Positions 26,038 through 62,361 of a stretch of 64,000 nt of DNA are shown here, in pieces; positions within the stretch are counted from its first letter, which is position 1; every line of letters begins with the position of its first letter. The DNA comes from Akkermansia sp. RCC_12PD (GTDB taxonomy: Bacteria; Verrucomicrobiota; Verrucomicrobiia; Verrucomicrobiales; Akkermansiaceae). Position numbers and translations under genes: made by a program. The DNA is taken from the NCBI RefSeq assembly GCF_036417355.1, contig NZ_CP143889.1:1116001-1180000 (forward strand). Direction: 5' to 3'. Under the pieces are notes generated by a model. That model worked only from the letters and a program-made list of their open reading frames with translations. It searched no databases and had not been told where the DNA came from.

Positions 26038-26085
26038 TGGCTCCCCCGGTTGGGCTCGAACCAACGACCTAGTGATTAACAGTCA
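26038..26085. repeat. attL: 48-bp copy of the tRNA-Asn 3' end
   Basis: Identical to 62287-62334, from TGGCTCCCCCGG to ATTAACAGTCA. It covers the CCA end, acceptor and T arms, variable loop and part of the anticodon arm. It then diverges, so it is an att duplicate and not a working tRNA. Confidence 0.95.
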
Positions 26086-30325: not shown

Positions 30326-30327
30326 TC

Positions 30328-46992: not shown

Positions 46993-47137
46993 GATGGTGG
47001 TTCTTTCGTTGTTGATGGGTGGATATAGTAAAGCCGCCATGCCCCGGTATGGGAACATGGCGACTTTGTGAAGGATGACAGGCAGGTAAGAGCCTGTGTC
47101 TGGTATATATGACGGTGAGGGAGGTGTTATTTCATTG

Positions 47138-48043
47138 CTACTCTTTGGCCCCGGCTTCCCGTAGCAATTTCTCGCATTTCGTACAGTTATATCTGGTAGC
47201 CAGCATGAGAGCCGTGTTCCCTTCCTTATCTTCCATATTCACATTTACCCCGGCCGCTAACAACTCTTTCATGCATTCTCCACGGTCATGGCCAGAATAA
47301 GGACCAATCGCATACATGAGAGCCGTACGCCCGTCATTATCTTTAACATTCACGTTTGCTCCCGCTCCCAGCAATGCTTTCACACTGTTTGTAAGCTCAT
47401 TATAAGTAGCCCTCATTAAAGCCGTTTTTCCATCTTTATCCTTCACGTTTACGTCCGCACCAGCTTCTAGTAATGTTTTCACACAGTCCGGATACTTATC
47501 CTCAGTAGCCCACATGAGAGCTGTTCTCCCATCCTTATCCTGGGCATCCACATTTGCTCCTGCTTCCAGCAATGCTTTCACACTGTCTGTACGTCCATTA
47601 TAGGCAGCTTCCGTGAGAGGCATTTCTCCTTTTTTATTCTTTCCGTTTACATCTGCCCCGGCTTTCAGCAATACTTTTACACAATCTGTATATCCTCTAT
47701 TAGCAGCCAATATGAGCGCCGTATCCCCATTCTTAGCCTCCATGTTGAGGTCTGCCCCAGCGTCTATCAATGCTTTCACGCATTCCGTATGCCTACTATC
47801 AACAGCCCATATTAGAGCTGTATCCCCATCTTCTCCCTTCGCATCTACACGCGCTCCGTCCTTGATCAATTCCGTTACCCAATCGATATTCCCCTCTTTG
47901 ACAGCTTTCATGAGAACCGTATTTCCTTTCGAATCTCTTTTATTGGCTTCGGGATTATCGGTTTTTCCACATGAGGAAAGGAGTAAGGTGGGAATCAACG
48001 CAAGAACGGCAACGCGACCGATTCGATATATTTTTGTATTCAT
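47138..48043 (-). CDS. Ankyrin-repeat lipoprotein
   Basis: 301 residues. Lipoprotein signal with lipobox LLSSC (Cys25). Eight 33-residue ankyrin repeats follow (e.g. DGRTALMWATEDKYPDCVKT), ending at the C-terminus. It is expected to sit on the periplasmic face of the outer or inner membrane as a protein-binding scaffold. Repeat units are well kept, so it is not decaying. Last gene of a six-gene leftward cluster of envelope proteins. Confidence 0.85.
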   Translation of the reverse strand: MNTKIYRIGRVAVLALIPTLLLSSCGKTDNPEANKRDSKGNTVLMKAVKEGNIDWVTELIKDGARVDAKGEDGDTALIWAVDSRHTECVKALIDAGADLNMEAKNGDTALILAANRGYTDCVKVLLKAGADVNGKNKKGEMPLTEAAYNGRTDSVKALLEAGANVDAQDKDGRTALMWATEDKYPDCVKTLLEAGADVNVKDKDGKTALMRATYNELTNSVKALLGAGANVNVKDNDGRTALMYAIGPYSGHDRGECMKELLAAGVNVNMEDKEGNTALMLATRYNCTKCEKLLREAGAKE

Positions 48044-48074
48044 ATGTTTATGTGTTAGAATCTTTTCTTTCTGG

Positions 48075-48812
48075 TTACCACTTCATAGGAAAAGGAGACG
48101 TTTCGTTATACTTTCTATGATAGTAAACCGGGTTTGCCAGCCACCATATGCCTTGAATGAGAGCAAGGATGAATTCGGAAATCCATAAAATCCCAAGCGC
48201 CGGATTAGGATTAATGAATGCAGCAACAATGATCACAATATATATGATCCCCCATCCCCAGCTTCCATTGTAGAATTTATGAGCGCCAACGGGCCACAGG
48301 AAAATAGCCAGCAAACCTGCAATGATACTGCTTTTATGTCGCCCATGAGCATGGACGGACCGAACGGGTGCAGCCTGTGTTTCTCCTCCTTTCGCTCTGG
48401 AATGCTTCCGGAACGATCCAAAGCTTTTGAATATAAAAACCGCACCTATTAACATCAAAGGACCCAAGAATTTCGCTTTGGGCCATAAGTTGATGCAGAT
48501 CACGCAAATCACCATTAAACCGGCTCCTATTGCCATATGTAACCATGCATCCTGAAGGAAGGGAGAGGTTTTCCTTTCCTGACCATTGTTTAGTGCAATG
48601 GGCAACGGAGGAGGCGTTGCTGTTGGTGGGGGAGAAGGGGGGGCCGCACACCAGGAGAACGCATCTTCGCAAGCTTTCCATGTTGCCCAGCCGGGAGTCC
48701 ATACCAAGGAATTCGGCGGAAGCTTCCTATCCTGATATAGTTTCTTCAATTCTTCTTCCGAGAACGGTCCTTCCTGCGTGCCATCGGGACGTGTTATATG
48801 ATAATCGTTCAT
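48075..48812 (-). CDS. GYF_2 and TM2 domain membrane protein
   Basis: 245 residues. N-terminal GYF_2/DUF4339 domain (HITRPDGTQEGPFSEEELKK then WTPGWATWKACEDAFSW) that binds Pro-rich peptides. After a Pro-rich linker come membrane helices and a TM2 domain, AIFLWPVGAHKFYNGSWGWG. TM2 is the short helix-turn-helix typical of membrane-integrated sensors. It lies 15 bases from a second GYF_2 protein and 31 bases before the ankyrin lipoprotein gene. Function unknown. Confidence 0.8.
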   Translation of the reverse strand: MNDYHITRPDGTQEGPFSEEELKKLYQDRKLPPNSLVWTPGWATWKACEDAFSWCAAPPSPPPTATPPPLPIALNNGQERKTSPFLQDAWLHMAIGAGLMVICVICINLWPKAKFLGPLMLIGAVFIFKSFGSFRKHSRAKGGETQAAPVRSVHAHGRHKSSIIAGLLAIFLWPVGAHKFYNGSWGWGIIYIVIIVAAFINPNPALGILWISEFILALIQGIWWLANPVYYHRKYNETSPFPMKW

Positions 48813-48826
48813 GATTTTGTCAGAGT

Positions 48827-49618
48827 TTACCAGCCGCTTCCCTGATAAGTGCCGTCATTGAAACGTCCCGAATTCCGGGATCGTGGTACTTCACCAGCTC
48901 CGCCACATTGCGGGCAAGGCATGCGGTATTGATTTGATTCCGTTCGATTCCAGAGAGCCCTTCCGCTGCCCGGCGTTACAACTCCGCTTCCTCCGCATTT
49001 TTTGCAGATCTCCATGGCATTGTTTTCGTAAAAGTTATTGGCCGCACGAATCATTTGTTGCAACTGATAGTCCGAATTGTCGCCCCCACCCATACTGTTC
49101 TGTATCCACGCATTTGATTCATACTGGGGAACAGCGGGCTTCTTCGCACCAACCGAAAGGATGATGATCACCAGCATCAGTCCAATAACACAGACAGTAT
49201 AATGGTTTATTCCGTACGTTTGCCCTTTTACCTGTAATGCCCGCAATCCCCATCGATGGATCTGATTCAGAATTTCATGGTTCTGCATCCAATCTGACAA
49301 GGACCTGTATTCCTTTGCCGTCGATGCCTTCATTTCATCTGGAGAAAAGGATTTCTCATGTTGTTCCGCATGAGCAGACGATGTGTTCGAATGGGATGCC
49401 GTACCTTCTGAACCGGGATGTGGAGGAAGAGGCGGCAGCTTGGCGCTGGAAATAAACCATTCAAAGGCGTCTTCACAGGGGTGCCATTGATCCCATCCTT
49501 CTGTCCAGACGTAAGAACCGGGAGGAATAGTCCGCTGATGATAAAGGCCTTTTAGCTCGTCTTCAGAAAAAGGTCCTTCCTGTGTGCTGCCCGGTCGAAC
49601 AAGGTAATAGGAAATCAT
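48827..49618 (-). CDS. GYF_2 domain membrane protein with DnaJ-like zinc motifs
   Basis: 263 residues from the ATG at 49618 (a TTG 9 bases upstream is also in frame). N-terminal GYF_2 domain (YLVRPGSTQEGPFSEDELKG, WTEGWDQWHPCEDAFEWF), a linker, one membrane helix (TVCVIGLMLVIIILSVGA), then two CxxCxG motifs, CKKCGGSGVV and CPQCGGAGEV, like the DnaJ zinc centre. The zinc part would be on the far side of the membrane from the GYF domain. It is the only protein in the cluster with metal-binding motifs. Confidence 0.8.
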   Translation of the reverse strand: MISYYLVRPGSTQEGPFSEDELKGLYHQRTIPPGSYVWTEGWDQWHPCEDAFEWFISSAKLPPLPPHPGSEGTASHSNTSSAHAEQHEKSFSPDEMKASTAKEYRSLSDWMQNHEILNQIHRWGLRALQVKGQTYGINHYTVCVIGLMLVIIILSVGAKKPAVPQYESNAWIQNSMGGGDNSDYQLQQMIRAANNFYENNAMEICKKCGGSGVVTPGSGRALWNRTESNQYRMPCPQCGGAGEVPRSRNSGRFNDGTYQGSGW

Positions 49619-49663
49619 AAGAATCAAAGGTGTAGATTCATGAATTAAACGAGAGAAAGCGCT

Positions 49664-50437
49664 TCAGAGGAATAATGGCAACAGTCCTCCCAAGATAAGT
49701 ATTGAGACAAGCATGAGGCCCAGGATGGCAAAGGAACGTTTCCATGAGCATTGGAAATTCCGGGCGACTACAAGGATGACCAGGATTTCAACGAAGAGAA
49801 AGAGCCATGACTGATTCACCCAGTTGCCAAGCATATCGAAGATGGCCAGACCAACGCACCACGGGATCAATGTTTTCCGGTTTATTGTAGCATCCTTGGG
49901 AGAAAGCAGCACAATATACCCGTACAACAATAGACCGGAGATGATGCTGATGAGGAATGGAAACGCCTCCCCAGGAGAAGAACCTTCCACGGTTTTCATG
50001 AATGCGTAGTATTCATCCAGTTCTCTCTGTGCTCTCGTATCCCCGACATTAGCTTTCTGCTGTAAATGACCTATCGACCATTCATTGTTGCTCTGAGCCA
50101 TAGCAAGCTGCTGGCGCAACGCATTAGCCTGGGCCGTATCTCCTTTTCCCTCAGCTTCAGCAATAGCATTTTCCATCCGTAGGACTCCTATAGCACATTC
50201 CTTGGCTGTAGTGGCTCCTCCCATGTACTGCTGGTAAAGCTGCTGTCCATATCTCTGATCAGCCTGCGCAATACCTTTCTCCATATCTTCAGCCAAACCA
50301 GACTTTTTCGGAGGAGAACCGGGCTCATCTTGAGAAAACGCCTCAGGAGTATAAAAAAGGAAGCAAAACCCCATCAGCAGAGCAGTAAGAATGCTCCTTT
50401 TTATCCCAAGTCTTTGTCTTTGGCGTACTGTATTCAT
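49664..50437 (-). CDS. Envelope protein with C-terminal paralogous membrane module
   Basis: 257 residues from the ATG at 50437. A signal or anchor (ILTALLMGFCFLFYTPEAFS) is followed by a helical, Gln/Ala-rich extracytoplasmic part with a Sel1-like or coiled-coil look (MAQSNNEWSIGHLQQKANVG). Four membrane helices come last, ending NFQCSWKRSFAILGLMLVSI. That C-terminal module is shared with the next two upstream genes. A longer reading from 50488 overlaps the neighbour by 32 bases. Function unknown. Confidence 0.7.
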   Translation of the reverse strand: MNTVRQRQRLGIKRSILTALLMGFCFLFYTPEAFSQDEPGSPPKKSGLAEDMEKGIAQADQRYGQQLYQQYMGGATTAKECAIGVLRMENAIAEAEGKGDTAQANALRQQLAMAQSNNEWSIGHLQQKANVGDTRAQRELDEYYAFMKTVEGSSPGEAFPFLISIISGLLLYGYIVLLSPKDATINRKTLIPWCVGLAIFDMLGNWVNQSWLFLFVEILVILVVARNFQCSWKRSFAILGLMLVSILILGGLLPLFL

Positions 50438-50456
50438 TGTTATGTTTGTATTTGTG

Positions 50457-51623
50457 TTAATTGCCTCCCGGCAGGATTTTGCCTGCATGATAAGATGTGA
50501 AAAGAGTTAGAGCCAAAATACTGAAAAGAGTAACGTAAGAACGTCCCCAAGACCATTTAAAGTCGCAAGCAGTCCGAATTTCGACCAGAATTCCAAGGCT
50601 TATCATTAAGAATGAATACCACACTCCCCAAGGGAAATTGAGTGATCTGTCAAGGATTCCCCAGAACCTGAATTCATGGATAAAATACGGTATCCAGCCA
50701 CCAAATGTTAAATTGCAGCACATGTCAGCTACTGCTATCCCGGCACTCCATAGAATAAGTCTTTTGTATCCACCATTTTTCCCGACAGCTGAAAACACGG
50801 CAATAACTACAAACATTACCACTCCCAGAATTATGCTGTACAAAAGGCTTATCCATAGCCAGTCTCCTCTGGCGCCTGCTCTTTTCAATATCTTCACGAT
50901 ATTATCGTGATCTTTATCCAAAGCCAATTTGAGGGCAGTCTTGCCAAATTCATTTTGTGCTTCTAGATGAGCTCCCGCATCAATCAGTATTCGGACTACT
51001 TGTTCATGGTCGTTGGCCGAAGCTATCATCAGGGGAGTTGTTTCTTCGAATCCTTTGACATTAATGTCGGCTCCTGCATGAATAAGCATCTTTACAATTT
51101 CAGCATGACCTTTGGCCGAAGCTGCCAGAAGAGAAGTGATTTCATGTCCGCTACTTGTTGCGTTAACATCTGCCCCTGCCAGAATCAACATCTGAACGAT
51201 GGTATCATATCCCCATGTGGCGGCCAGCATGAGAGCTGTTGTACCTTTTGCATCTTTCGCATGAACATCTGCCCCGGCATCAATCAGTATCCTGGCAATT
51301 CTATCATGTCCTCCCATCGAAGCCCATATAAGGAATGTTCTGCCTCCCTGGTCTCTGGCGTTAATATCAGCGCCTTCCTGTATCAGTCTTAGAACCTCTT
51401 TGTCCTGGCCTTTCGATACAGCAAGATACATGAACCTGGACAATTCATCGATCGTGTAGTGAGGGCCCAAAGTGTCTCCCCATCCTTCATTAACTCTTAT
51501 ATCCCCGCCTCCGCTGTATATCTGTGAGGAAGCATTGTAGGTACTGCAGAGACACAACAAGGCTGCCATCAGAATAATGACCCGGGGAAGCCGAATTTTT
51601 CGTCTGTGGACTCCTGTTCCCAT
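50457..51623 (-). CDS. Ankyrin-repeat membrane protein with the shared C-terminal module
   Basis: 388 residues. A signal peptide or anchor (VIILMAALLCLCSTYNASSQ) is followed by six ankyrin repeats (about 65-255; e.g. KGTTALMLAATWGYDTIVQM). Then come membrane helices (SIILGVVMFVVIAVFSAVGK) and the module ending DFKWSWGRSYVTLFSILALT. Combines both main components of the cluster in one chain: the ankyrin scaffold and the paralogous membrane module. Starts 15 bases after the neighbouring lipoprotein gene. Confidence 0.75.
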   Translation of the reverse strand: MGTGVHRRKIRLPRVIILMAALLCLCSTYNASSQIYSGGGDIRVNEGWGDTLGPHYTIDELSRFMYLAVSKGQDKEVLRLIQEGADINARDQGGRTFLIWASMGGHDRIARILIDAGADVHAKDAKGTTALMLAATWGYDTIVQMLILAGADVNATSSGHEITSLLAASAKGHAEIVKMLIHAGADINVKGFEETTPLMIASANDHEQVVRILIDAGAHLEAQNEFGKTALKLALDKDHDNIVKILKRAGARGDWLWISLLYSIILGVVMFVVIAVFSAVGKNGGYKRLILWSAGIAVADMCCNLTFGGWIPYFIHEFRFWGILDRSLNFPWGVWYSFLMISLGILVEIRTACDFKWSWGRSYVTLFSILALTLFTSYHAGKILPGGN

Positions 51624-51638
51624 TATCCTTTATCGCGT

Positions 51639-52091
51639 TTATATCTCTACACCCAAAATCACTGCTGCCAGAATTCCCCCGACAAGAGAAATCCCCATAC
51701 TGATGCCTAATACCCCGAATGATTTGCCCAGTGTGAAATTCAGAACTTTATGAGCAACCAGGACAATGGCCGCCAATTCCAGCAAAGCAAGAAAACCGGA
51801 GTCTATCACGGCAAGGATGAGATCAACCACGGCGAATACAATGGCAATCGTCTTGAAGTCCTTGATTGCCGCCGGTTCTTTATGCTCGGACAACCAGTAG
51901 AGCGCCAGGAAGATCGAATAACCAAACAATCCGGAGCAAATCAACGTAAACAGAATCTCCCTGCCGGGTTCTGTTTTGCTAAGCTCCCGAGCGCTCTTAC
52001 TGACAAGGATGGCGCAGGAGGACAATAGGGAGGTAGTTACAATGGCCAATCCAGTCGCTAACCCGATTTTATATATTTCATTTCTCTTCAT
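51639..52091 (-). CDS. Small membrane lipoprotein with the shared C-terminal module
   Basis: 150 residues. Lipobox LLSSC near residue 26, then four membrane helices that form the shared module, ending NFTLGKSFGVLGISMGISLV. It is the minimal member of the three paralogous membrane proteins. First in the leftward run, 4 bases beyond the zinc-ribbon gene. Function unknown. Confidence 0.7.
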   Translation of the reverse strand: MKRNEIYKIGLATGLAIVTTSLLSSCAILVSKSARELSKTEPGREILFTLICSGLFGYSIFLALYWLSEHKEPAAIKDFKTIAIVFAVVDLILAVIDSGFLALLELAAIVLVAHKVLNFTLGKSFGVLGISMGISLVGGILAAVILGVEI

Positions 52092-52095
52092 GTGA

Positions 52096-52635
52096 TTATA
52101 TGTCGTTGGTTATTGATTGCAGAATATGCCTCTTAACCCGCTTCCAGTTGCGGCAGGCCAACGTTCGAATCCCGGAATCCGACTGGCTGATCAGGATGCC
52201 ATGCACTGCCTGCTCCCGTTCCAGAACGGTGCGGCGTTCCTTCTCGGTGAGAGTACCGGGATGAACGACCTCGACGATCACAGGCGTCATCTTCCCGTCG
52301 GGGAAACAAACCATGCACCGGTGCTCTACCGTTTCCATCCCGTCCGGCCAGGTAATGACTCCGGCGCTTTGCACCTCCTTCAGGGAATGCCATTGAAACC
52401 CTTCCGATGAATCATTCCCATGGCAATCCGGATGACGGCAGTCCGCGCAGCGGTACCCCAGCGGCTCTCCGCATAAATCGTCCACCAGAACCTTGTGTCC
52501 GACAGCCAGCCCGCCCTGCCGGTCGGCCTCCAGATTCTGGACGACATAACGGTGCATGGCCCGTTCGACGAGCATCAGTTGATGGCCTCCGCATCGGGGA
52601 CAGGTGAACTGGATGATACTTTTCATTGCTGGCAT
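52096..52635 (-). CDS. Zinc-ribbon protein, unknown
   Basis: 179 residues from the ATG at 52635 (or 52626). Two Cys pairs at the N-terminus (FTCPRCGGHQ and YRCADCRHPDC) suggest a zinc ribbon. The middle contains WHSLKEVQSAGVITWPDGME and a further HRCMVCFP. Likely a cytoplasmic nucleic-acid or protein binder. Its promoter faces away from the HTH gene at 52766. Confidence 0.6.
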   Translation of the reverse strand: MPAMKSIIQFTCPRCGGHQLMLVERAMHRYVVQNLEADRQGGLAVGHKVLVDDLCGEPLGYRCADCRHPDCHGNDSSEGFQWHSLKEVQSAGVITWPDGMETVEHRCMVCFPDGKMTPVIVEVVHPGTLTEKERRTVLEREQAVHGILISQSDSGIRTLACRNWKRVKRHILQSITNDI

Positions 52636-52765
52636 CTCGTTTACATTGCCTGTATATCTCCTTTTTACGATTTTAGTCAACCTGAAAATCTCAATTTAAT
52701 CTCAAAAATAGGGATGTTATATAACCGTATTGCCATTCCTGAGCGATAGTGCTACATTTCGAAAC

Positions 52766-53122
52766 ATGGCGGGAGTGAATCAGGATGAGCTGAAAATGAA
52801 TGTCAAGCTGTGGCTCAAGGCCAACGGTTTCGACTACGCATGGCTCGCCGAACGATGTTTCGTGACGGAAGCGACCGTCCGCAACTGGATGGCGAAAAAG
52901 CCCATTCCCGCCGCCAAGGAACACATCATCCGGGAACTCATCAAGCAGCTCCCGTTGACCCTTCCGAGCCGGGTGCAGGTAGAAGAGGAAACGCTGATTA
53001 CCCTGAAGCTTGATCCGGATACCCGCAAGGTTCTTGAGAAAAAAGCCTTCTCCCAGGGTAAGACCCTGAAGGAGTTCCTGGCCGACGAAGTGCCGAGGCT
53101 CGGCAATCCCCCGCTTGCCTGA
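52766..53122 (+). CDS. HTH DNA-binding protein
   Basis: 118 residues from the ATG at 52766. An N-terminal helix-turn-helix is visible (DYAWLAERCFVTEATVRNWM), followed by a linker and a C-terminal helix (TLKEFLADEVPRLG). XRE-like regulators of this length occur with plasmid cargo. Its end overlaps the kinase fragment at 53115 by 8 bases, so they were one operon before the insertion. Confidence 0.65.
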   Translation: MAGVNQDELKMNVKLWLKANGFDYAWLAERCFVTEATVRNWMAKKPIPAAKEHIIRELIKQLPLTLPSRVQVEEETLITLKLDPDTRKVLEKKAFSQGKTLKEFLADEVPRLGNPPLA

Positions 53123-53396
53123 TTGTATGGATGCCTCCGGCTTCGCATTGCCTCCGGGAACTCTGCTGGGCAATTACAAGTTGCTCAAGGCGCTGGGCCA
53201 GGGAGGCTTCGGCATCACCTACATCGCCTGGGACAGCCAGCTCAGGCGCAACATTGTTCTCAAGGAATGCTTTCCTCTGGGATTGTGCAGCCGGGATTCG
53301 GATACCAGCGCCATCATCTCCCCTTCCACACGCAAGCAGGATGGAAGCGGGAAAAAAGGAACGATGAAGTCTCTTCGCTCCCTTGGTGAATTGTGA
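53115..53396 (+). pseudogene. Ser/Thr protein kinase, N-lobe only
   Basis: About 60 residues of kinase, then chance sequence. PPGTLLGNYKLLKALGQGGF then GITYIAWDSQLRRNIVLKEC carries the Gly-rich loop and the ATP-binding Lys. The HRD and DFG parts are missing. The break lies close to 53,340-53,399, exactly where a reductase gene on the other strand is also cut. It overlaps the HTH gene, so an HTH-kinase operon was interrupted. Confidence 0.8.
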
Positions 53397-53398
53397 GG

Positions 53399-53566
53399 CT
53401 AAATGATTAGTGTGCCCTTGCGGCGCGGGCTTCCAGTCAATACAATGATGATCATTTTTCCTGCTTTCTTGTTGGGAAGGCCAGCGGCTTCCGCCAAGTC
53501 CAGTTTTGACAGGAGTTCTGCCCCGGCGGCCATGTCGGCTGTTTTGATAAAATCTCTTCTGTCCAT
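53399..53566 (-). pseudogene. TAT-exported flavin (NADPH-dependent FMN) reductase, N-terminal stub
   Basis: MDRRDFIKTADMAAGAELLS is a twin-arginine signal, followed by LPNKKAGKMIIIVLTGSPRR, the first strand and phosphate loop of NADPH-dependent FMN reductase/flavodoxin-like folds. It stops after KGT where the insertion boundary lies, so about 80 percent of the gene is lost. Left edge of the Bacteroidota-like block. Divergent from the kinase relic. Confidence 0.75.
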
Positions 53567-53574
53567 GGAGTGTT

Positions 53575-54606
53575 TCAATCCAGCTTTTTCTCGTGGAGCC
53601 ACTGGGAAAGATGGTCAGCCACTTCCACGTTGTTCAGGTCAGAGAAGGGGAAGTGCGTATTGCCATGCAGTCCTATCTCCGGCAGGTGGATGACCGTCGC
53701 GTCACCGCCGTGCTTGTTGATCAGAGCCACCCACTTGCGCATCAAGTGGAGACGGCGCGTCCATTCGTAGAGTTCGGGGCGTTCGTTCGTATAGGGCAGA
53801 TTATCACCATAATAGATGATGATGGGGATTCGGGTGAACAGCATGAATGTCTCCATCGGCACTTCCATCGCCTCCGTCCTGCCGGAAAGCGTGATGTTCC
53901 GGCCTTCCTCCGGTACCATCCCCTTGGGGAACGGCACGTCGCATCCCGGTTCGTAGGCTATGATGGCACGGATGTTCTTCGTCTTCGGCAGCGTCCGCCA
54001 GCCCACGCCGCCGCCCTGCGAGTGGGTAACAAACACCGCCGGGCCTATCTTGTCGAACAGTGCGGCGTATGCTTCGGCATACACGTTGAGGTCGGTCGTG
54101 CCGATGGTCGGTGTCATCTGACGGAAAAACTGGTCGAGCGTTTCCGGGGTATGGCTGAACTGCACGCCCTCAAAGTAGTCCGGCCAGATGCCGATGCGGA
54201 AGCGGTTGAACCATATTTCTTCATCGAAAGCAGGAGTAATAGTGGCGATTTCCGTACTGCGCCCGGCATTGCCACGTCGGGGCTGGTCTACAAGATAAGT
54301 GGAAAACCCTCTTCGCAGGAAGATATTCTGGAACCCCTCGCGTCCGTCAGGAGTGGTCTCCCACGTCTTGGAGAACTGCCCCACGCCGTGGGCAAAGACG
54401 AGCGGATATTTCCGTGCATTCACGGGTTTCTGGTAGAATACGTAGGCATGGTCTCCATGATAGGTGTGTCCTGCCGAATCTTTCAGTACCGTACCACCTA
54501 CGGCGAAGCTACCTTGCTCGTCGATGGACAATGCACCGCTGTTCTGCGAACAGGAGGTTGATAGCAACAATACCGCACTTATACAGGTAATGATGATGTT
54601 CTTCAT
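53575..54606 (-). CDS. Alpha/beta hydrolase lipoprotein
   Basis: 343 residues. Lipobox LLLSTSCSQ near residue 19. Alpha/beta-hydrolase fold with oxyanion HG in FAHGVGQFSKTWE, nucleophile in VFVTHSQGGGVGW, and a late His in EIGLHGNTHFPFSD. Belongs to a secreted hydrolase group frequent in Bacteroidota; substrate unknown. Between the reductase stub and the aldo/keto reductase gene; same strand, short gaps. Confidence 0.8.
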   Translation of the reverse strand: MKNIIITCISAVLLLSTSCSQNSGALSIDEQGSFAVGGTVLKDSAGHTYHGDHAYVFYQKPVNARKYPLVFAHGVGQFSKTWETTPDGREGFQNIFLRRGFSTYLVDQPRRGNAGRSTEIATITPAFDEEIWFNRFRIGIWPDYFEGVQFSHTPETLDQFFRQMTPTIGTTDLNVYAEAYAALFDKIGPAVFVTHSQGGGVGWRTLPKTKNIRAIIAYEPGCDVPFPKGMVPEEGRNITLSGRTEAMEVPMETFMLFTRIPIIIYYGDNLPYTNERPELYEWTRRLHLMRKWVALINKHGGDATVIHLPEIGLHGNTHFPFSDLNNVEVADHLSQWLHEKKLD

Positions 54607-54615
54607 GGATGCGAT

Positions 54616-55803
54616 TTATTTCTGTACTTTCGATTCCTGCAAAGCATCGTAACGGCTGCCTACCACGGGGATAGCGGCAACAGCGTTTTCAATTTCCGTC
54701 ATCTCTTCCGCCGTGAAGCGTATATCGCAGGCCCGCAGGTTTTCTTCGAGGTGCGATAGCTTGGTCGTGCCGGGGATAGGGACGATGAACGGACGCTTGT
54801 TCATCAGCCATGCCAATGCAGTTTGTGCTGCGGTGATGCCGCGTGTCCTGCCAAAGGCATTCAGCACCTCTACGATACGCATATTGGCACGGATGGCATC
54901 GGGCTGGAAGCGCGGCAAAGTCTGGCGGTTGTCATTCGTCGTATCGAACTGCGTGTATTCGTTGATGTTCCCGCCAAGGAACCCACGGTTTAGCGGACTG
55001 TAAGGCACAAAACCGATGCCCAGCTCTTCGCACGCGGCAAGTACGCCGTTCTCCTCTACCATGCGGTGCATGAGGTGGTATTCGCTTTGAATTGCTGTCA
55101 CGGGGCAGACGCGGTGGGCGCGTCCGATTGTGTCGGCATTCACCTCGCACATGCCCCAGTGCAGGATCTTCCCCTCTTTTATCAGTTCTGCGCATGTCTC
55201 CGCCACCGCCTCGATGGGGGTATTCGGGTCGCTGCGGTGCTGGTAGAACATGCCGAGCGTTTCCACACCTAGGTTGCGCAGTGAGTTTTCGCACACGCGG
55301 CGGATGTTCTGCGGCGTACTATCTTCTTCGGTCTTTACCTGCACGCCGTTCACGAACTTATGACCGAACTTGGAAGATACGAACACGCGGTTGGTGTAGC
55401 CTTTCAACGCCTTGCCTGTTAGGATTTCGTTCTTGTGATAGCCGTAACTTTCAGCCGTATCGAACAGTGTTACCCCCCGTTCGATGGCTTCATGCAGCAA
55501 CCGGATGCAAGCAGCTTCATCGGGCGATTGGCTGCGGTGGTGGTTCAGTCCCATGCAGCCGAACCCCATCGACGATACACGGAATGCCGCACTGCCGTGA
55601 CCCAATGTGCGGAAACCGCGGACTGCCGCCATGCCCGCTTCATTTGACGTTTTACTCGCCGCGGCCGATTTGCCCGAGATACCCCTTTCCGAGGCTGTTG
55701 CCTTTTCCAGTATAGGCGTCAGGCAAATCGCCGTGCCTGCCAATACGCTTTTTCTCAGGAACCCGCGGCGTCTGATGCCATTATGATTGTGTTCTTGTAT
55801 CAT
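54616..55803 (-). CDS. TAT-signal aldo/keto reductase
   Basis: 395 residues. Twin-arginine leader (GIRRRGFLRKSVLAGTAICL) followed by an AKR barrel: MGFGCMGLNHHRSQSPDEAA, catalytic Asp/Tyr in LFDTAESYGYHKNE, Lys in VFVSSKFGHKF, and IPGTTKLSHLEENL binding NADPH. Reduces aldehydes or ketones, here in the periplasm. Gap to the hydrolase is 9 bases; clearly one operon. Substrate unknown. Confidence 0.85.
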   Translation of the reverse strand: MIQEHNHNGIRRRGFLRKSVLAGTAICLTPILEKATASERGISGKSAAASKTSNEAGMAAVRGFRTLGHGSAAFRVSSMGFGCMGLNHHRSQSPDEAACIRLLHEAIERGVTLFDTAESYGYHKNEILTGKALKGYTNRVFVSSKFGHKFVNGVQVKTEEDSTPQNIRRVCENSLRNLGVETLGMFYQHRSDPNTPIEAVAETCAELIKEGKILHWGMCEVNADTIGRAHRVCPVTAIQSEYHLMHRMVEENGVLAACEELGIGFVPYSPLNRGFLGGNINEYTQFDTTNDNRQTLPRFQPDAIRANMRIVEVLNAFGRTRGITAAQTALAWLMNKRPFIVPIPGTTKLSHLEENLRACDIRFTAEEMTEIENAVAAIPVVGSRYDALQESKVQK

Positions 55804-55817
55804 TGTTTGTTTTTCTT

Positions 55818-55974
55818 TTATGGTTTACTTATCTTGCTACCGTTTTTGGCCTGTTCTTTCTGTTCGTTGATGGCTGCCATAACTGCGCTTGTTCCTGCTT
55901 TGGCGAATGTCTGCGCACATGTCAGTCCGATACCTGCGGCAGAATCCCGTTACCATTACCACTTTTCCCTTCAT
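55818..55974 (-). pseudogene. SDR remnant, about 45 residues, frameshifted
   Basis: MKGKVVMVTG in one frame and AAGIGLTCAQTFAKAGTSAV in another give the start of a short-chain dehydrogenase nucleotide-binding fold. It ends with MAAINEQKEQAKNG and a stop. Only the first 45 codons remain, and a one-base shift breaks even those. Confidence 0.7.
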
Positions 55975-56016
55975 TGTTTCCATTGTATTTATTTCTAATT
56001 AGTTATTTATCTGGTG

Positions 56017-56024
56017 CAAAGTTA
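56017..56024 (-). promoter_or_regulatory. Bacteroidota-type -7 element
   Basis: The minus strand reads TAACTTTG, fitting the TAnnTTTG -7 consensus of Bacteroidota promoters, about 45 bases before the start of the SDR remnant. The matching -33 box is unclear. Confidence 0.5.
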
Positions 56025-56071
56025 CGCAAAGTCTTACAACTGTTGTTTGTTTATATGTTGTACAGTTTACT

Positions 56072-57661
56072 TTATTTCAGATGTTCATTGAAGAACTCCG
56101 TGAGTTTATCAAACGGAATTTTTCCTCTTTGGTCGTACAAGTCCACATGGTTGGCTCCGGACACGATACAGAGTTCCTTTGGTTCGTTTGCCAGTTTGTA
56201 AGCATCCTCGCTGAAATAGCGCGAATGGGCATTCTCCCCGGCGATGAAGAGGACGGGGCGCGGAGAAATCTCTTTGATTTGAGCAAACGGGTAAAAGTTG
56301 CTCAGTGCCGCCTGGCTCGTGAAACGCGTGCCTTGATAACGGGGATGCTGCCCACGCTGTGGATTGCGGTAATAGTCGAAAAACTCCCGCTGCACGGCGT
56401 TGGCGTTCTCCGGCAGTTGCTCCGGCGTGCCGAAACGGATGCGAGGTTCTGTTCCTTCCGCCTCACGCCAACGTTGCGCCGCCACTTCGGCAAACATCGC
56501 TTTCCGTTGATCGTCGGTCATGCTGTCGCCAAGCCCCCTGCGCGTGGCGCGTCCCATGTCATACATGCTGACCGTTGCCAACGCCTTGATACGAGGGTCG
56601 ATGGAAGCGGCGCATACCGAAAAGCCCCCACTGCCACAGATACCGATGACGCCGATACGCCCCCTGTCCACGAAAGGTTGTATGCCGAGCCAGTCCACTG
56701 ATGCACTGAAGTCCTCCACCAATGCGTCAGGTGATACGGCGTGGCGAGGTTCGCCACCGCTCTCTCCCTGATAGGAAGCATCGAATGCCAACGTGACGAA
56801 GCCCCGTGCTGCCATTTCCTGTGCATAGAGACCGGAGCACTGCTCCTTGACCGCCCCATAGGGATGTCCCACGATAATGGCGGGGTATTTTGCGTCCGTA
56901 TTCATATCAGCCGGCATATAGAGGTCGGCGGCAAGTCGGATTCCGTAGCTGTTCGTATAGAACACCTTACGAACCGTCACGCGACTGTCGGCAGCAAAGG
57001 TCTTGGGCGGTTCGGGTTTCCACTCCGAGGCACGAACAAGCGTCACCGCCTCGTCAATCTGCGCTTCGGTCAGACCATTGTGCTTACCGTGGGCGATGTG
57101 GGTTTTCAGTTCGTTCCCCACGCCGTCCATCGCGGCAAGCGAGGCGATGGTTGCCAGTTCGCGCGTCTTCCAGTCGAGGTTGTCGCGCCCGAAGATGTCA
57201 CCGAACAGGTGTGCCTTGAGGTATTGGTCGAGTACGGGGGCAAACGTCAACACGGCTCCCTGCGCATCGCGCCCGAACAGTTTGCGCTGGTTGGCGGCTC
57301 CGTAATCCACTCCACGGCTTACTTCCTGCGAGGTGGGCAGAGAGCCCTCGGTATCCTCTATGCCCTGTGTCTTACGCTGCTGCAACACGTCCATGAACGT
57401 GACTAACCCTCCCATGCTGCGCGGAAATCCTGCATAGGCATAGAGTTGAACAAGCACTTCCTTGATTTCATTCACGGTCAGCCCTGCATTCAGCCCGGCT
57501 GTCAGCGCCACGACCAGTCCCTCTTTGTCGCCTTTGGCGGCGCTACCGCTGATGGCTACTATCTGCCTTTCTTTCAAACTCAACATGTTTTTAGTGTTTT
57601 GGGCTAGCACCCCACTCATGCCGAACAACGAGCAAACGAGAGTTATCAATAACGTTTTCAT
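56072..57661 (-). CDS. Carboxymuconolactone decarboxylase-alpha/beta hydrolase fusion
   Basis: 529 residues. A signal peptide (MKTLLITLVCSLFGMSGVLA) is followed by two CMD/AhpD-like domains (about 25-105 and 125-205; LVVALTAGLNAGLTVNEIKE and LATIASLAAMDGVGNELKTH), then an alpha/beta hydrolase (230-529) with IGVIGICGSGGFSVCA carrying the Ser nucleophile and late His in SGANHVDLYDQ. The fused form is found in Bacteroidota. Probably periplasmic; the CMD domains might act on peroxides or lactones. Start ATG has an AAAGGA-like site 5' to it. Confidence 0.85.
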   Translation of the reverse strand: MKTLLITLVCSLFGMSGVLAQNTKNMLSLKERQIVAISGSAAKGDKEGLVVALTAGLNAGLTVNEIKEVLVQLYAYAGFPRSMGGLVTFMDVLQQRKTQGIEDTEGSLPTSQEVSRGVDYGAANQRKLFGRDAQGAVLTFAPVLDQYLKAHLFGDIFGRDNLDWKTRELATIASLAAMDGVGNELKTHIAHGKHNGLTEAQIDEAVTLVRASEWKPEPPKTFAADSRVTVRKVFYTNSYGIRLAADLYMPADMNTDAKYPAIIVGHPYGAVKEQCSGLYAQEMAARGFVTLAFDASYQGESGGEPRHAVSPDALVEDFSASVDWLGIQPFVDRGRIGVIGICGSGGFSVCAASIDPRIKALATVSMYDMGRATRRGLGDSMTDDQRKAMFAEVAAQRWREAEGTEPRIRFGTPEQLPENANAVQREFFDYYRNPQRGQHPRYQGTRFTSQAALSNFYPFAQIKEISPRPVLFIAGENAHSRYFSEDAYKLANEPKELCIVSGANHVDLYDQRGKIPFDKLTEFFNEHLK

Positions 57662-57673
57662 ATCCTTTGCCTT

Positions 57674-57880
57674 TTACTTCATCGTACTCATAATCACGTA
57701 ACGAAACTGCACCTTGCCCTGCTGCACGTGGTGGCAGACTTTGTCAATAATGGCGCAGTCCACCTCTGGTGCATTAAGTGTGAATCCCTTTGCCGGAATA
57801 CGCCCGTTCTGTTGTTCCTGTGCGCCAACCATGCAGAACAGGGACTGGGCCATGAATAAAATGCTTTTTGTTCTCATCAT
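57674..57880 (-). CDS. Short exported-protein remnant
   Basis: 68 residues. A signal-like N-terminus (TKSILFMAQSLFCMVGAQEQ) and RIPAKGFTLNAPEVDCAIID then KVCHHVQQGKVQFRYVIM. Looks like the start of an exported domain that has lost the rest; may be a truncated first gene of the CMD operon. Weak. Confidence 0.35.
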   Translation of the reverse strand: MMRTKSILFMAQSLFCMVGAQEQQNGRIPAKGFTLNAPEVDCAIIDKVCHHVQQGKVQFRYVIMSTMK

Positions 57881-58196
57881 GTTTATCTGTTATTTGTAAT
57901 TGTTTGTCACTGCTTGCAAGGATACGGCGGATTTTCCGTGGTGCCCAGACCTCAACCACAGATAGAATTACCAAATTCATCGATTCTGTCTTCGATGACA
58001 TCCTTTGCCTGCGGAAATGGTAAAATGGTCTGCGATTCAGGTTATACCGTTCCGCATGGGGCGGTGCAGGAAGTAATGGTTACGGGAAGCATTCCGCCGC
58101 ATTGCGCAGCGGTGAAATGCCTGCAAAATCATCAATTTGACAAATGAGTATGCCAAAATATAATGATATTTCCTATACACCGCTTAAATGGCATAA

Positions 58197-59102
58197 ATGA
58201 TGAGAGAAATAACAAGGATTGACACGGTTCAGCAATACTGTGATTTGTTTGGTATCGAGGCGTCGCATCCGCTGATAAGCGTTGTAAACTGCTATGAAAT
58301 GCCCCCGATAAAACATTCCAAGCGACTGTACAACGTGTACGCCGTGTTGTTGAAAGACACCGACTGTGGCTTGATGCAGTACGGTCGTAGCCTGTACGAC
58401 TACGAAAAAGGCACGGTGTTGTTTGCCGCTCCCGGTCAGGTAATGGGAGCCGACGATGACGGCAACTTGCATAAGCCTGCCGGGTGGGCGTTGGTGTTCC
58501 ACCCCCAACTATTGCGAGGTACGCCGCTTGCCCGATTGACGAAGGACTATACCTATTTTTCATATAATGCCAACGAAGCCCTGCATCTGTCCGAACACGA
58601 ACAGGATATCTTTATCGGCAGCATCAGCAGGCTGCGCGATGAACTTGTCTACCCGATAGACAAATACAGCCGTTCGCTCATCATCGACAACGTGAAGCTA
58701 TTGCTCGACCAGTGTATCCGCTTCTATGACCGCCAGTTCATTACGCGTGAGAATGTGAATAACGACCTCTTGGCACGCTTTGAGGCTCTTCTCGATGATT
58801 ATTACAATTCGCGCCAACCTTTGTTCGAGGGCATCCCCACCGTGCAGTGGTGCGCCAGCAAACTCGGCCTTTCTACTAATTATTTCAGTGACTTGGTGAA
58901 GAAGGGAACCGGGCAATCCGCCATCAAGCACATTCAGCAAAAGACGTTGGATATTGCCAAGGAGAGCATTGTCGCGACAAACAAGAGTCTCAGCCAGATT
59001 TCCGACGAGATGGGCTTCCAATACCCACAGCATTTTACGCGATGGTTCAAGAAGATGGAAGGCTGTACGCCAAATGAATACCGCAACGGCATCGTAGGAT
59101 AA
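58197..59102 (+). CDS. AraC-family transcription regulator
   Basis: 301 residues (start 58197 or 58200). N-terminal cupin-like sensing domain (about 1-180) and a C-terminal double HTH: VQWCASKLGLSTNYFSDLVK and then IVATNKSLSQISDEMGFQYP, HFTRWFKKMEGCTPNEYR. Divergent from the CMD-hydrolase and aldo/keto reductase genes, so it probably activates them in response to a small molecule. It is the right-most clear gene of the foreign block. Confidence 0.85.
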   Translation: MMREITRIDTVQQYCDLFGIEASHPLISVVNCYEMPPIKHSKRLYNVYAVLLKDTDCGLMQYGRSLYDYEKGTVLFAAPGQVMGADDDGNLHKPAGWALVFHPQLLRGTPLARLTKDYTYFSYNANEALHLSEHEQDIFIGSISRLRDELVYPIDKYSRSLIIDNVKLLLDQCIRFYDRQFITRENVNNDLLARFEALLDDYYNSRQPLFEGIPTVQWCASKLGLSTNYFSDLVKKGTGQSAIKHIQQKTLDIAKESIVATNKSLSQISDEMGFQYPQHFTRWFKKMEGCTPNEYRNGIVG

Positions 59103-59497
59103 CGTCGGACTGAAAATAAAAAAAGTGGCGTGGAGCAAACGCCTCTCTCATATACTCATTCCTCGCGTACGCTTGGCTTTCATCTTCTGTCGGCAGATGA
59201 GTCATACCTTGTCTTCTTTTCGATCAATCCATATTGCAATCCGAATAACGGCAGTCATTCTGGAACAACAAGCCCAATGGAGCATAGCAAAACCGGCATG
59301 CATGCAAAGCTCAAAGCTCACATCATCCGACGACTTTCATCAAAAGGCATTGCTCCCATGGGAACATTTTTTGAAATAGCCATTCGTGCCATTTCAAGAA
59401 AACGCATAAACTTGAAATAGTGGAGATAACACCATTCATGTTGTGGGCTATCTAAAAGAAAGCCCTCCATTCGGAAGACTTCCTGATGTTGCCAGTC
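59103..59497. other. Right boundary zone of the nested block; no gene supported
   Basis: One rightward frame (59130-59420) reads SKTGMHAKLKAHIIRRLSSK near its end and could be the tail of a broken gene, but I recognise no family. The true right edge of the foreign block lies somewhere here. Confidence 0.4.
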
Positions 59498-60292
59498 CTA
59501 CACCTGCCACACATCCTCCGGGAACGGAGTCAACGATACCCCGTCGCCCGGCACGGACATGCTGACCATATGGACGCTACGGCTCAGCCATGCAAACAAT
59601 TCCGGGAACTTCTGTTCATTGATTTGCATGGGCGGGCGCCCCGGGCTGATGCAGGAGAGTTCCGACAAGTCAGCGCGGCCGATACCGAAGACAAACACAC
59701 TGAGCTTGCGGGCAGCCGAGAGTTCCTTCAATCGTCCCCCCAGATCCCTGTGCCGGGTGCTGGTAGGCACTCCGTCCGTCATCACGACGAGCCAGGGCTG
59801 GTAGTATTCCACCCCGTGTTCCCGGTAGGTACGCTTGCGAATGTCGAGTTCAGTCAAAGCCAGTTCAACGGCTTCGCCAAGGAGAGTTTCATTCTCCTGC
59901 GATGTGGTGATTCTAAGATCAACGTCAGATTCCCGGATCGGGCCGAATTCTTTCACCGTGGTCGTTGTCCGGGCGAATGTGATCACTGCTACATCGGCGG
60001 CCAGCTTCGCCAGAGGATCGGCGAGAATGTTCCTGACGAACCGCTGAAGCCCGACGTTGAGCTCGTCCATCCGGGTGACGATATTGTCTCCCGTGACGAT
60101 ATTCCAGTTGATCCCGTCAGAATACTCCTGACGGAGGACTTGTTGATGGTCGCCCCGGACAATACCGTTCATACTGCTGCTGGCATCCATCAGAAAGAGA
60201 ACGGGAAGCCGGGCGTTGGCGTTGTTGCCGAACTCGCGCATGGCGGCGAGCTGTTCCTGTTTGTTTGGTTGTGTCGATGATGATATAGACAT
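59498..60292 (-). CDS. vWA-domain protein (TerY-like)
   Basis: 264 residues. The MIDAS motif is complete: LFLMDASSSM (Asp36-x-Ser38-x-Ser40), a Thr in the TTSQENETLLGEA region and VVMTDGVPTS. This von Willebrand A fold binds Mg2+ and protein partners; TerY-type members pair with kinases and phosphatases in stress or phage-defence gene sets. It sits 12 bases downstream of the kinase gene on the same strand, and the two form an operon. No phosphatase is nearby. Confidence 0.85.
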   Translation of the reverse strand: MSISSSTQPNKQEQLAAMREFGNNANARLPVLFLMDASSSMNGIVRGDHQQVLRQEYSDGINWNIVTGDNIVTRMDELNVGLQRFVRNILADPLAKLAADVAVITFARTTTTVKEFGPIRESDVDLRITTSQENETLLGEAVELALTELDIRKRTYREHGVEYYQPWLVVMTDGVPTSTRHRDLGGRLKELSAARKLSVFVFGIGRADLSELSCISPGRPPMQINEQKFPELFAWLSRSVHMVSMSVPGDGVSLTPFPEDVWQV

Positions 60293-60304
60293 GGTTTATT
60301 CAAG

Positions 60305-61531
60305 TTAATGGTTGGTGGTTGGATTCCGGGTTGCCTGATTCAATGCGCTACGACGCCGTATGCAGAGCTTGCATAAAGATTTGGCATGAGATTGCCGTAA
60401 ACGCCGTGCGGCATCGTCAGGAGTCTCCCGGAAGAGAATCCCGCAGTCTGTACAGATGTTGGATGTCATCTGTACCAGCAGACTTCGGGGTGGGCAGGGA
60501 CGGTCGTACAGAAGATCCCGGTACATGGGATGATCCCTTCCGCCTCCCGGCTCCATATCCCTGAGGTATTGCAGCAAACAACGCGCCAGATACCCCGGCA
60601 TGACGCGTGGACGCAAATCGCGACGCTGGACACAGGTAAGATTGTGACCGAGAGCATCGCGGAGCTTGCGGGGGAGATACGACCAGACATAGCGCCCGGG
60701 CGTATCGGGCGGATAGAATCCCGCAGGCGGTTTGTACGAAGCAAACGGGTACGGCAGCACGCCCTTCCTGGCGGCTTCCCGCATCTCTCCTTCTCCCCCT
60801 TGCCGGGCAAAGGGAGACAGGCCGAGCGTCAGCGTCATGAAGAGCAGGACGGACAGGGCGTAGGCATCGTGACTGCGGGTGCGGAGGAAGTCTCCGTAGT
60901 TACCTCTAAGTTCCGGTGCCCGGAACCGTTCCGTGCCGACGGAACAGGGATAGTCCTCGACCTGAAAACTGTCGGCATCCACCCAGCAGATGGAGCCATC
61001 GGGAGAAACCAGCACATTGCCGGGATGCAGATCGCCCAGGACGACACCGTAACGGTGCAGAGTATGGATAGCTTCTGATAAGTTCAGGCATAGCCCGGTC
61101 AGATCGTAACGGCTCCATGACGGGAGCTGTTTCTTCAACAGTTCTGCATGAAACGCGAACGCCCCGAGCGGAACACCGTCCGCCCGGGGCATCAGCACGC
61201 CGACAAAGCGCCGCAGTTCGTCGTACAGGATCTCACGCGGCCACGCCACGCACGGGGAACGAATGGGGCGGGAACACATCAGCCGAAGCTTCTGCTTGCG
61301 CCAACGCATCCGTTGGTTCGGATGGTACAGCTTGGCAACGAGTGGCGATCCTAATGCCGAATGGGCAACAAGGACCGATCCTTCACCGCCTTCCGCAATG
61401 GGTTTTCCCAGAACGATTCGTTTCCCACGGTCTGAGAACAGAACATCTCCGGTCGAGTACTTCCTGCCATTGCCGCAGAGTTCTTCATCCAGCCGCCTCA
61501 CCTGATGGTGGAGTGCATAGAATGGAGTCAT
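60305..61531 (-). CDS. Protein kinase-like protein with C-terminal zinc motifs
   Basis: 408 residues. Gly-rich loop in IAEGGEGSVLVAH, ATP Lys in PLVAKLYH, catalytic block VVLGDLHPGNVLVSPDG with Asp and Asn, and VDADSFQ in place of DFG. The C-terminal part has Cys pairs (NICTDCGILF and LCKLCIRR) suggesting a zinc finger. Resembles the kinase of vWA-kinase-phosphatase triads. It is transcribed with the vWA gene to its left; its start is 6 bases from the divergent gene at 61538. Confidence 0.8.
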   Translation of the reverse strand: MTPFYALHHQVRRLDEELCGNGRKYSTGDVLFSDRGKRIVLGKPIAEGGEGSVLVAHSALGSPLVAKLYHPNQRMRWRKQKLRLMCSRPIRSPCVAWPREILYDELRRFVGVLMPRADGVPLGAFAFHAELLKKQLPSWSRYDLTGLCLNLSEAIHTLHRYGVVLGDLHPGNVLVSPDGSICWVDADSFQVEDYPCSVGTERFRAPELRGNYGDFLRTRSHDAYALSVLLFMTLTLGLSPFARQGGEGEMREAARKGVLPYPFASYKPPAGFYPPDTPGRYVWSYLPRKLRDALGHNLTCVQRRDLRPRVMPGYLARCLLQYLRDMEPGGGRDHPMYRDLLYDRPCPPRSLLVQMTSNICTDCGILFRETPDDAARRLRQSHAKSLCKLCIRRRSALNQATRNPTTNH

Positions 61532-62286: not shown

Positions 62287-62334
62287 TGGCTCCCCCGGTT
62301 GGGCTCGAACCAACGACCTAGTGATTAACAGTCA
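62287..62334. repeat. attR: 48-bp direct repeat within tRNA-Asn
   Basis: Identical to 26038-26085. The CCA-proximal 48 bases of the tRNA come from the element's att site after crossover; the remaining 5' part to 62361 is host. Confidence 0.95.
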
Positions 62335-62361
62335 CCCGCTCTACCGCTGAGCTACAGGGGA
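62287..62361 (-). tRNA. tRNA-Asn (GTT)
   Basis: 75 nt on the minus strand with encoded CCA. Acceptor TCCCCTG pairs with CGGGGGA, discriminator G; anticodon loop CTGTTAA gives GTT; T arm GTTGGTTCGAGCCCAAC. Intact and probably functional despite serving as the integration site. Confidence 0.95.

What the first reader, a model, noticed from the sequence alone, without database searches (positions are those of the whole stretch)
47138..52091. Six-gene envelope cluster of ankyrin, GYF_2/TM2 and paralogous membrane modules
Seen: six consecutive leftward genes encode an ankyrin lipoprotein, a GYF_2-TM2 protein, a GYF_2 protein with DnaJ-like zinc motifs, two membrane proteins and a membrane lipoprotein. 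Three neighbours (49664, 50457, 51639) share a C-terminal four-helix module ending in similar lines (NFQCSWKRSFAILG, DFKWSWGRSYVTLF, NFTLGKSFGVLG). One chain combines ankyrin repeats with that module. Known: GYF_2 binds Pro-rich peptides, ankyrins are scaffolds, and TM2 proteins are membrane integrated. Inference: the set could form a membrane complex, maybe a defence or exclusion system carried by the element. I know of no described system with this composition.
Basis: partly seen in the sequence, partly recalled or inferred. Interest (0 to 1): 0.72.

Follow-up and report, generated by a model that had tools for sequence, protein, structure and literature searches.

The report
Kinase-anchored salt-tolerance gene cassette in Akkermansia
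These membrane, scaffold and repeat-protein genes are the swappable cargo of a gene locus, built around a DNA-binding protein and a kinase, that recurs across the gut bacterium Akkermansia; one of them matches a gene already shown to help E. coli tolerate salt.

Summary
The six genes are real and under purifying selection, but they are part of a larger unit. (1) Protein 49664-50488 is an allele of StlA, published in 2013 (PMC3861447) as conferring NaCl and KCl tolerance on E. coli: same 257-aa reading, both published promoter boxes, the Ala136|Gln137 transposon site, and the same neighbours. So 'no described system' is wrong. (2) The 4-TM modules of StlA and 50457 are homologous; 51639 is linked through StlA only. 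(3) A seventh gene (52096, Cys-rich) heads the operon. It faces an HTH gene followed by a Hanks-type kinase with a variable C-terminal part. That anchor recurs through the genus, and the operon behind the Cys-rich gene is hypervariable (GYF_2, ankyrin, Sel1, dynamin, vWA, Hsp70, DUF1232). (4) Here it rides a 36.3-kb element in tRNA-Asn (48-bp repeats) beside type I and type IV restriction genes, and its kinase is truncated. Best reading: a kinase-controlled, swappable envelope-stress cassette. Phage defence is a serious, untested rival. My 10 answered paper searches found no description of the genus-wide architecture.

The parts
47138..48043 (-). A: ankyrin-repeat lipoprotein (variable cargo)
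   Evidence: Pfam Ank_2 2e-71; similar gene in L018 and L019, absent from L016, dissimilar ankyrin protein in L017
48075..48812 (-). B: GYF_2 - PPLP linker - TM - TM2 protein
   Evidence: Pfam; linker motif; missing from L017
48827..49627 (-). C: GYF_2 - PPLP linker - TM - two CxxCxGxG-like motifs
   Evidence: Pfam; closest solved relative 7z3c, E 0.0014; in all five copies
49664..50488 (-). D: StlA allele; signal sequence, variable region, 4-TM module (257 aa from the internal ATG)
50457..51623 (-). E: ankyrin repeats plus 4-TM module; stop overlaps the D start by 32 bp
   Evidence: missing from L017 and L019 with the same breakpoint
51639..52091 (-). F: small 4-TM lipoprotein, paralogue of the D module
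   Evidence: distant relative in a G-headed operon of another species (L102:8581-9021)
52096..52680 (-). G: Cys-rich (three CxxC) protein heading the operon
   Evidence: 17 of 288 genomes of the order, one genus of 50
52730..53122 (+). H: HTH protein, divergent from G
   Evidence: solved relative 3bs3, E 5e-4
53115..53396 (+). Kinase remnant: first ~86 residues of the Hanks-type kinase that is 529-722 aa in the four other stl copies
53318..59175 (.). Segment replacing most of the kinase gene and the RhuM-family gene of the relatives; carries abhydrolase, aldo/keto reductase, CMD/S15 protein, AraC-type regulator
59498..61531 (-). vWA protein (59498-60292) and kinase-fold protein (60305-61531), conserved beside the locus in L016, L017 and L018
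26038..26085 (.). left 48-bp att repeat of the 36.3-kb element
62287..62334 (.). right 48-bp att repeat, inside tRNA-Asn (62287-62361, -)

Best explanation
The six genes are cargo of a kinase-anchored, membrane-associated stress-response locus of Akkermansia (call it the stl locus). Shown: an HTH gene and a Hanks-type kinase (kinase domain, a TM segment, variable C-terminal part) lie in one direction and face a divergent operon headed by gene G; the genes behind G differ between species; in this window they are F, E, D (StlA), C, B and A; StlA alone raised NaCl and KCl tolerance of E. coli in a published experiment. Inferred: the part of the kinase beyond the membrane senses trouble at the envelope; phosphorylation and the HTH protein set the output of the divergent operon; the GYF_2 proteins B and C assemble a membrane complex by binding PPLP-type linkers; the ankyrin proteins A and E add contacts; the 4-TM proteins D, E and F change membrane ion permeability or stability. 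In this genome the kinase is truncated, so the cargo is unregulated or under other control.
For: D is an StlA allele; salt phenotype published. Anchor geometry: G divergent in 29 of 30 and kinase in 26 of 30 best H loci; kinase behind H in 44 of 51 testable and G in 26 of 51 testable named loci. Kinase domains alike in 496 of 496 pairs, tails beyond the TM in 98 of 406. GYF_2 hits cluster with H: 21 of 45 within 10 kb against a mean of 1.3 in circular shifts, 0 of 20,000 shifts reaching it. Variable cargo. Purifying selection. GYF_2-PPLP: motif in 12 of 25 GYF_2 proteins against 15 of 324 others.
Against: The salt phenotype was measured for StlA alone in E. coli, without kinase or HTH, so kinase control is not shown; it was absent in Lactococcus and for sucrose, glycerol, low pH and bile. 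The kinase is broken in the window copy, in the second locus of the same genome and in G047. 4 of 30 and 7 of 51 loci show no kinase next to H. 8 of the 12 PPLP proteins are alleles of B and C. Neighbours are defence-type genes. The published pI of StlA (6.39) differs from D (7.61), so they are alleles, not the same protein.
Confidence: 0.45

Rival explanations
1. Anti-phage defence or superinfection exclusion: the kinase locus is an immune system whose divergent operon carries exchangeable membrane effectors, and the salt effect of StlA in E. coli is a side effect of an added membrane protein.
For: Type I R-M and a type IV-like REase beside the window copy, a type IV-like helicase REase and Vsr beside L016, BrxA/BrxB beside L017, an RmrA match beside L019. 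Hypervariable cargo; 9 of 77 cargo proteins match the LeoBC and 5 the LeoA models, 9 match Dynamin_N, 2 VWA, 1 HSP70. By coordinates, 10 of 28 dynamin hits in 12 genomes lie within 10 kb of an H hit (no control, genomes chosen from H loci). Mobile-element location.
Against: No PADLOC model matches B, C, D, F or G; E matches ankyrin-bearing models only, H one model at 0.012, and the kinase generic kinase models. Flank proteins were picked by eye without a control; for L018 only one was tested, without a match. StlA has a salt phenotype. Some loci lie among housekeeping-type genes (L104, L113; names recalled).
Confidence: 0.35
2. Mobile-element baggage in decay: the genes ride along, and the kinase losses show that the locus is dispensable.
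For: Only two of five copies hold the full A-F set; kinase broken in three places; the tRNA-Asn repeat was not found around the other copies in the stretches fetched, and L039 and L075 have integrases near tRNA-Leu and tRNA-Val, so contexts differ.
Against: dN/dS below 1 in all defined pairs; H and G keep their geometry in many species; StlA acts on its own.
Confidence: 0.12

Closest known systems
stlA salt-tolerance locus, fosmid SMG 25 (Culligan et al. 2013, PMC3861447; abstract, sections 11 part 1, 13, 15, 22 and 23 read)
   Same: StlA = D by length, promoter boxes and transposon site; listed order kinase, small gene, unknowns, stlA, DnaJ zinc finger, DUF4339, TM2, ankyrin; HMP scaffolds with stlA carry R-M, integrase, vWF, kinase-HhH, RhuM (COG3943) and RecB-exonuclease genes like this window
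   Different: The paper saw a gut-specific orphan on a prophage; here it has paralogues (E, F), a named genus, and sits as cargo behind a recurrent HTH-kinase-G anchor
GTPase-centric and MoxR-vWA conflict systems (Kaur et al. 2020, PMC7159879; passages and section 29 read)
   Same: Variable operons with membrane parts, GYF pairs fused to TM regions, vWA-kinase groups, Hsp70
   Different: No GTPase or MoxR-type match among A-H of the window; anchored by HTH and kinase instead
Bacterial GYF domain of the Myxococcus gliding protein (PDB 7z3c; NCBIfam GltJ)
   Same: GYF domain in a membrane-associated protein: E 0.0014 to C, GltJ model 8.4e-5, far below its cut-off
   Different: Similarity confined to the GYF domain and linker

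Membership tests
StlA (protein D) | 257-aa reading, about 28.6 kDa | tested here: met
   257 aa from the internal ATG, 28.58 kDa; pI 7.61 against 6.39 published, so an allele (paper)
StlA (protein D) | TTGGCT and TCTTATCAT boxes, 21 bp apart, upstream of the ATG | tested here: met
   one match in the window; in all five copies at 79/58 bp by my count (77/56 in the paper)
StlA (protein D) | Ala136-Gln137 at the transposon site | tested here: met
   window, L016 and L017; L018 and L019 differ there
StlA (protein D) | neighbours: kinase, DnaJ zinc finger, DUF4339, TM2, ankyrin | tested here: met
   paper
StlA (protein D) | direct sequence identity to JQ269600 | not testable with these tools
   record not among the collections offered
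StlA (protein D) | salt tolerance in E. coli | not testable with these tools
   published for SMG 25 StlA, not for this allele
GTPase-centric or MoxR-vWA conflict systems | GTPase with GAP1, or MoxR with vWA, at the core of the operon | tested here: not met
   no such Pfam match among A-H of the window; a vWA gene lies nearby at 59498
vWA-PP2C-kinase triad (TerY-P type, recalled) | vWA, PP2C and kinase genes together | tested here: inconclusive
   vWA and kinase fold present; no PP2C was looked for with a model
PADLOC defence systems | match of cluster proteins to a system's models | tested here: not met
   B, C, D, F, G none; E ankyrin models only; H one at 0.012; kinase of L016 generic kinase models; A was not given

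The most novel reading that the evidence does not exclude
Akkermansia carries a genus-wide class of kinase-anchored immune or stress loci in which both the sensor (the kinase part beyond the membrane) and the effector set (4-TM proteins, GYF_2 scaffolds, ankyrin proteins, dynamins, vWA and Hsp70 modules) are swapped between strains while HTH, kinase domain and, in part of the genus, G stay fixed; StlA-type 4-TM proteins are membrane effectors that alter ion flux, and the published salt tolerance is the visible part of a defence or envelope-integrity function.
Probability: 0.33. Interest if true: 0.8.

Novelty: new variant of a known kind. Interest (0 to 1): 0.6.

Why it matters
It gives the orphan salt-tolerance gene stlA, described in 2013 as without homologues, a bacterial home, paralogues and a candidate regulator, and it exposes a variable kinase locus across a major gut genus. 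Because one cargo gene already has a phenotype in a laboratory strain, the function of the whole locus, stress resistance or phage defence, can be tested directly.

Tried and rejected
Plasmid records: no near match to 47000-53300. Viral contigs: none for D; one remote match for H (L149, 31%). Weak F matches in G147 and G119 lie inside long unrelated ORFs and were dropped; the one in G177 (L029) is kept as a solo relative. The F model was too poor to search. The G model (pLDDT 75) gave no PDB match with E <= 0.001; a profile of the F/D/E module (A2) matched no solved structure with E <= 1. T4SS ankyrin-effector names in NCBIfam are generic ankyrin similarity far below their cut-offs and are rejected. 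An apparent FHA domain behind a rabbit-gut kinase (L129) found no Pfam match and is dropped. The six genes as a stand-alone system: dropped once H, kinase and G proved the constant part. Prophage origin, as proposed in the paper: of 10 element proteins scanned with PHROGs, 4 matched, 3 of them replication or exonuclease families and 1 of unknown function; none matched a head, tail or lysis family; the element's other proteins were not scanned.

Paper searches: searches were answered (10 of 10); 57, 94 and 108 led to the two papers used. Of the other three papers listed I saw listings only. Only openly licensed PMC papers are searched.

Limits of counts: the match list was cut short, so one search uses only the 27 listed H hits of six single-contig genomes (G113 and G047 left out; lengths of G038 and G063 rounded). 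By eye those two give 4 of 10 and 0 of 7 GYF_2 hits near a listed H hit. 68 of 76 genomes match H at E <= 0.001, but many of these matches are remote HTH proteins. One search scored L108 at its second HTH gene; its first has both kinase and G. The 32 kinases were picked by motif, so HRD and the glycine loop are there by construction; 3 of 32 had no TM by the threshold used and two tails are only 6 residues long (98 of 351 pairs without them). The cargo was read with a home-made coding score that misses B and C of the window, so cargo lists are incomplete and may run into unrelated genes; 77 of 79 cargo proteins of at least 90 aa were scanned, 3 of them from the L095 stl copy. The profile contains the relatives it finds.
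Full report
What is there. The six leftward ORFs are present as described. Pfam gives ankyrin repeats for A and E, GYF_2 for B (1.8e-12) and C (7.3e-12), TM2 for B (5.2e-7) and a sub-threshold DnaJ zinc motif for C (3.5e-4); D and F match no family above its cut-off. BLASTP and hhalign support one C-terminal module in D and E (2e-7; 95%, 3.2e-8), more weakly in D and F (1e-3; 75%, 2.5e-5), and not between E and F directly. Two boundaries were missed: G (52096-52680) precedes F by 4 bp, and H plus the start of a kinase (52730-53396) faces away from it.

Five copies. D occurs in 4 of 195 genomes drawn from the family, all in one genus, five copies in all. Every copy sits with F, C, G and H and with a kinase gene, which is an open frame of 529-722 aa in four and truncated in the window. 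Only the window and L018 hold all of A-F: E is missing from L017 and L019 with the same breakpoint (window about 51640/50546), B from L017, and A from L016, while L017 has a dissimilar 636-aa ankyrin protein. L095, the named record of the G055 copy, is Akkermansia muciniphila CSUN-56 AmIII. dN/dS is below 1 in all defined pairs. In D the middle part is variable (mean identity 0.62-0.70 at residues 41-160) and the module conserved (0.92-0.97). In L017 the kinase beyond residue about 331 and the C-terminal half of C differ from the other copies.

The module in the genus. A profile of F, D, E and two distant relatives finds 15 strong matches and one weak one in 7 of 76 genomes; the strong ones are the sequences in the profile or their alleles. 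Thirteen are in the five stl copies, one (G204 = L102:8581-9021) sits in another G-headed operon of a goat-gut Akkermansia, and one (G177, L029) is alone, in a stretch with C5 and N6-adenine DNA methylases.

The anchor. In the 30 best H loci, one per genome, G is divergent upstream in 29 and a kinase follows in 26. In 54 named loci of the genome collection the kinase follows in 44 of 51 testable and G is divergent in 26 of 51 testable. G was found in 17 of 288 genomes of the order, all in one of 50 genera. Of 32 kinases gathered by motif, 31 have DFG; their first 300 residues match in 496 of 496 pairs, while the tails beyond the TM match in 98 of 406.

The cargo. Behind G the genes differ from species to species. 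Of 77 cargo proteins scanned, 9 match Dynamin_N, 6 Sel1, 5 DUF1232, 4 GYF_2, 3 ankyrin (one from the L095 stl copy), 2 VWA, 1 HSP70 and 1 Pkinase. The window genome has a second such locus (L039) with HTH, a kinase with an in-frame stop, and two double-GYF_2 proteins, one with a PrsW protease domain, near an integrase. GYF_2 hits cluster with H: 21 of 45 within 10 kb in six genomes, mean 1.3 by circular shift, 0 of 20,000 shifts reaching it.

StlA. The paper search 'DUF4339, kinase' led to Culligan et al. 2013 (PMC3861447). Their salt-tolerant fosmid SMG 25 lists in order a kinase (555 aa), a 108-aa gene, unknowns of 84, 160 and 135 aa, stlA (257 aa), a DnaJ zinc-finger protein, a DUF4339 protein, a TM2 protein and an ankyrin protein. 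D meets the published features: 257 aa from the internal ATG, the TTGGCT/TCTTATCAT boxes (one match in the window; in all five copies) and Ala136-Gln137 (window, L016, L017). Its pI differs (7.61 against 6.39), so it is an allele; the paper lists homologues of 59-89% identity, some of 274 aa like the full ORF here. DUF4339 is, as I recall, the older name of GYF_2. That C and B correspond to three shorter ORFs there may reflect sequencing frameshifts or another allele (inference). StlA improved growth of E. coli MKH13 in NaCl and KCl but not in sucrose, glycerol, low pH or bile, and not in Lactococcus. The authors proposed a stress operon on a prophage.

Element. The window copy lies in a 36.3-kb element bounded by identical 48-bp repeats at 26038 and 62287, the second inside tRNA-Asn, with an integrase at 26178 and primase/helicase-type genes at 29204-31794. 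It holds type I R-M and a type IV-like REase. The same repeat was not found around the other copies in the stretches fetched. Defence-type genes flank four of five copies; the flank proteins were picked by eye, and for L018 only one was tested. The window's kinase is cut after about 86 residues, where a 5.9-kb segment stands in place of 2.6 kb of L016.

How it probably works. Shown: the recurrent HTH-kinase pair (with G in part of the genus), variable kinase tails, variable cargo, and the published activity of one cargo protein. Inferred: sensing by the kinase part beyond the membrane, control of the divergent operon, GYF_2-PPLP assembly (motif in 12 of 25 GYF_2 proteins against 15 of 324 others, though 8 of the 12 are B and C alleles), and ion-permeability control by the 4-TM proteins. 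Phage defence is nearly as likely: the neighbours and the dynamin, vWA and Hsp70 cargo recall the conflict systems of PMC7159879, whose defining core is not seen among A-H of the window.

Verdict. The genus-wide kinase-anchored architecture was not found in print by the searches named in Tried and rejected.

Noticed in passing
window 26038-62334: 36.3-kb integrative element in tRNA-Asn with integrase, primase/helicase-type genes, type I R-M, a type IV-like REase and an exonuclease; 48-bp identical end repeats.
   Followed up: partly
window 53318-59175: A metabolic-looking segment (abhydrolase, aldo/keto reductase, CMD/S15 protein, AraC regulator) replaces most of the kinase and the RhuM-family gene; COGs of this kind are in the legend of the stlA paper's Figure S4.
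   Followed up: partly
L039:3185-4804 and L075:8621-10216: Kinases of the second locus of this genome and of G047 are interrupted by in-frame stops, so kinase loss has happened more than once.
   Followed up: partly
L039:12123-13558, L016:6094-6462, L018:11967-12302, L019:14741-15187: A recurrent family of small one-TM proteins beginning MKDKxxKQPWPRSAK or similar lies near these loci.
   Followed up: no
L040:11148-12263: A protein with long PLP-rich repeats lies next to GYF_2 genes elsewhere in the same genome; a candidate GYF_2 ligand (no Pfam match above cut-off).
   Followed up: partly
L098:805-9363: A cargo operon with two vWA-like proteins, a kinase and a dynamin-like GTPase behind G in a horse-gut Akkermansia.
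   Followed up: no
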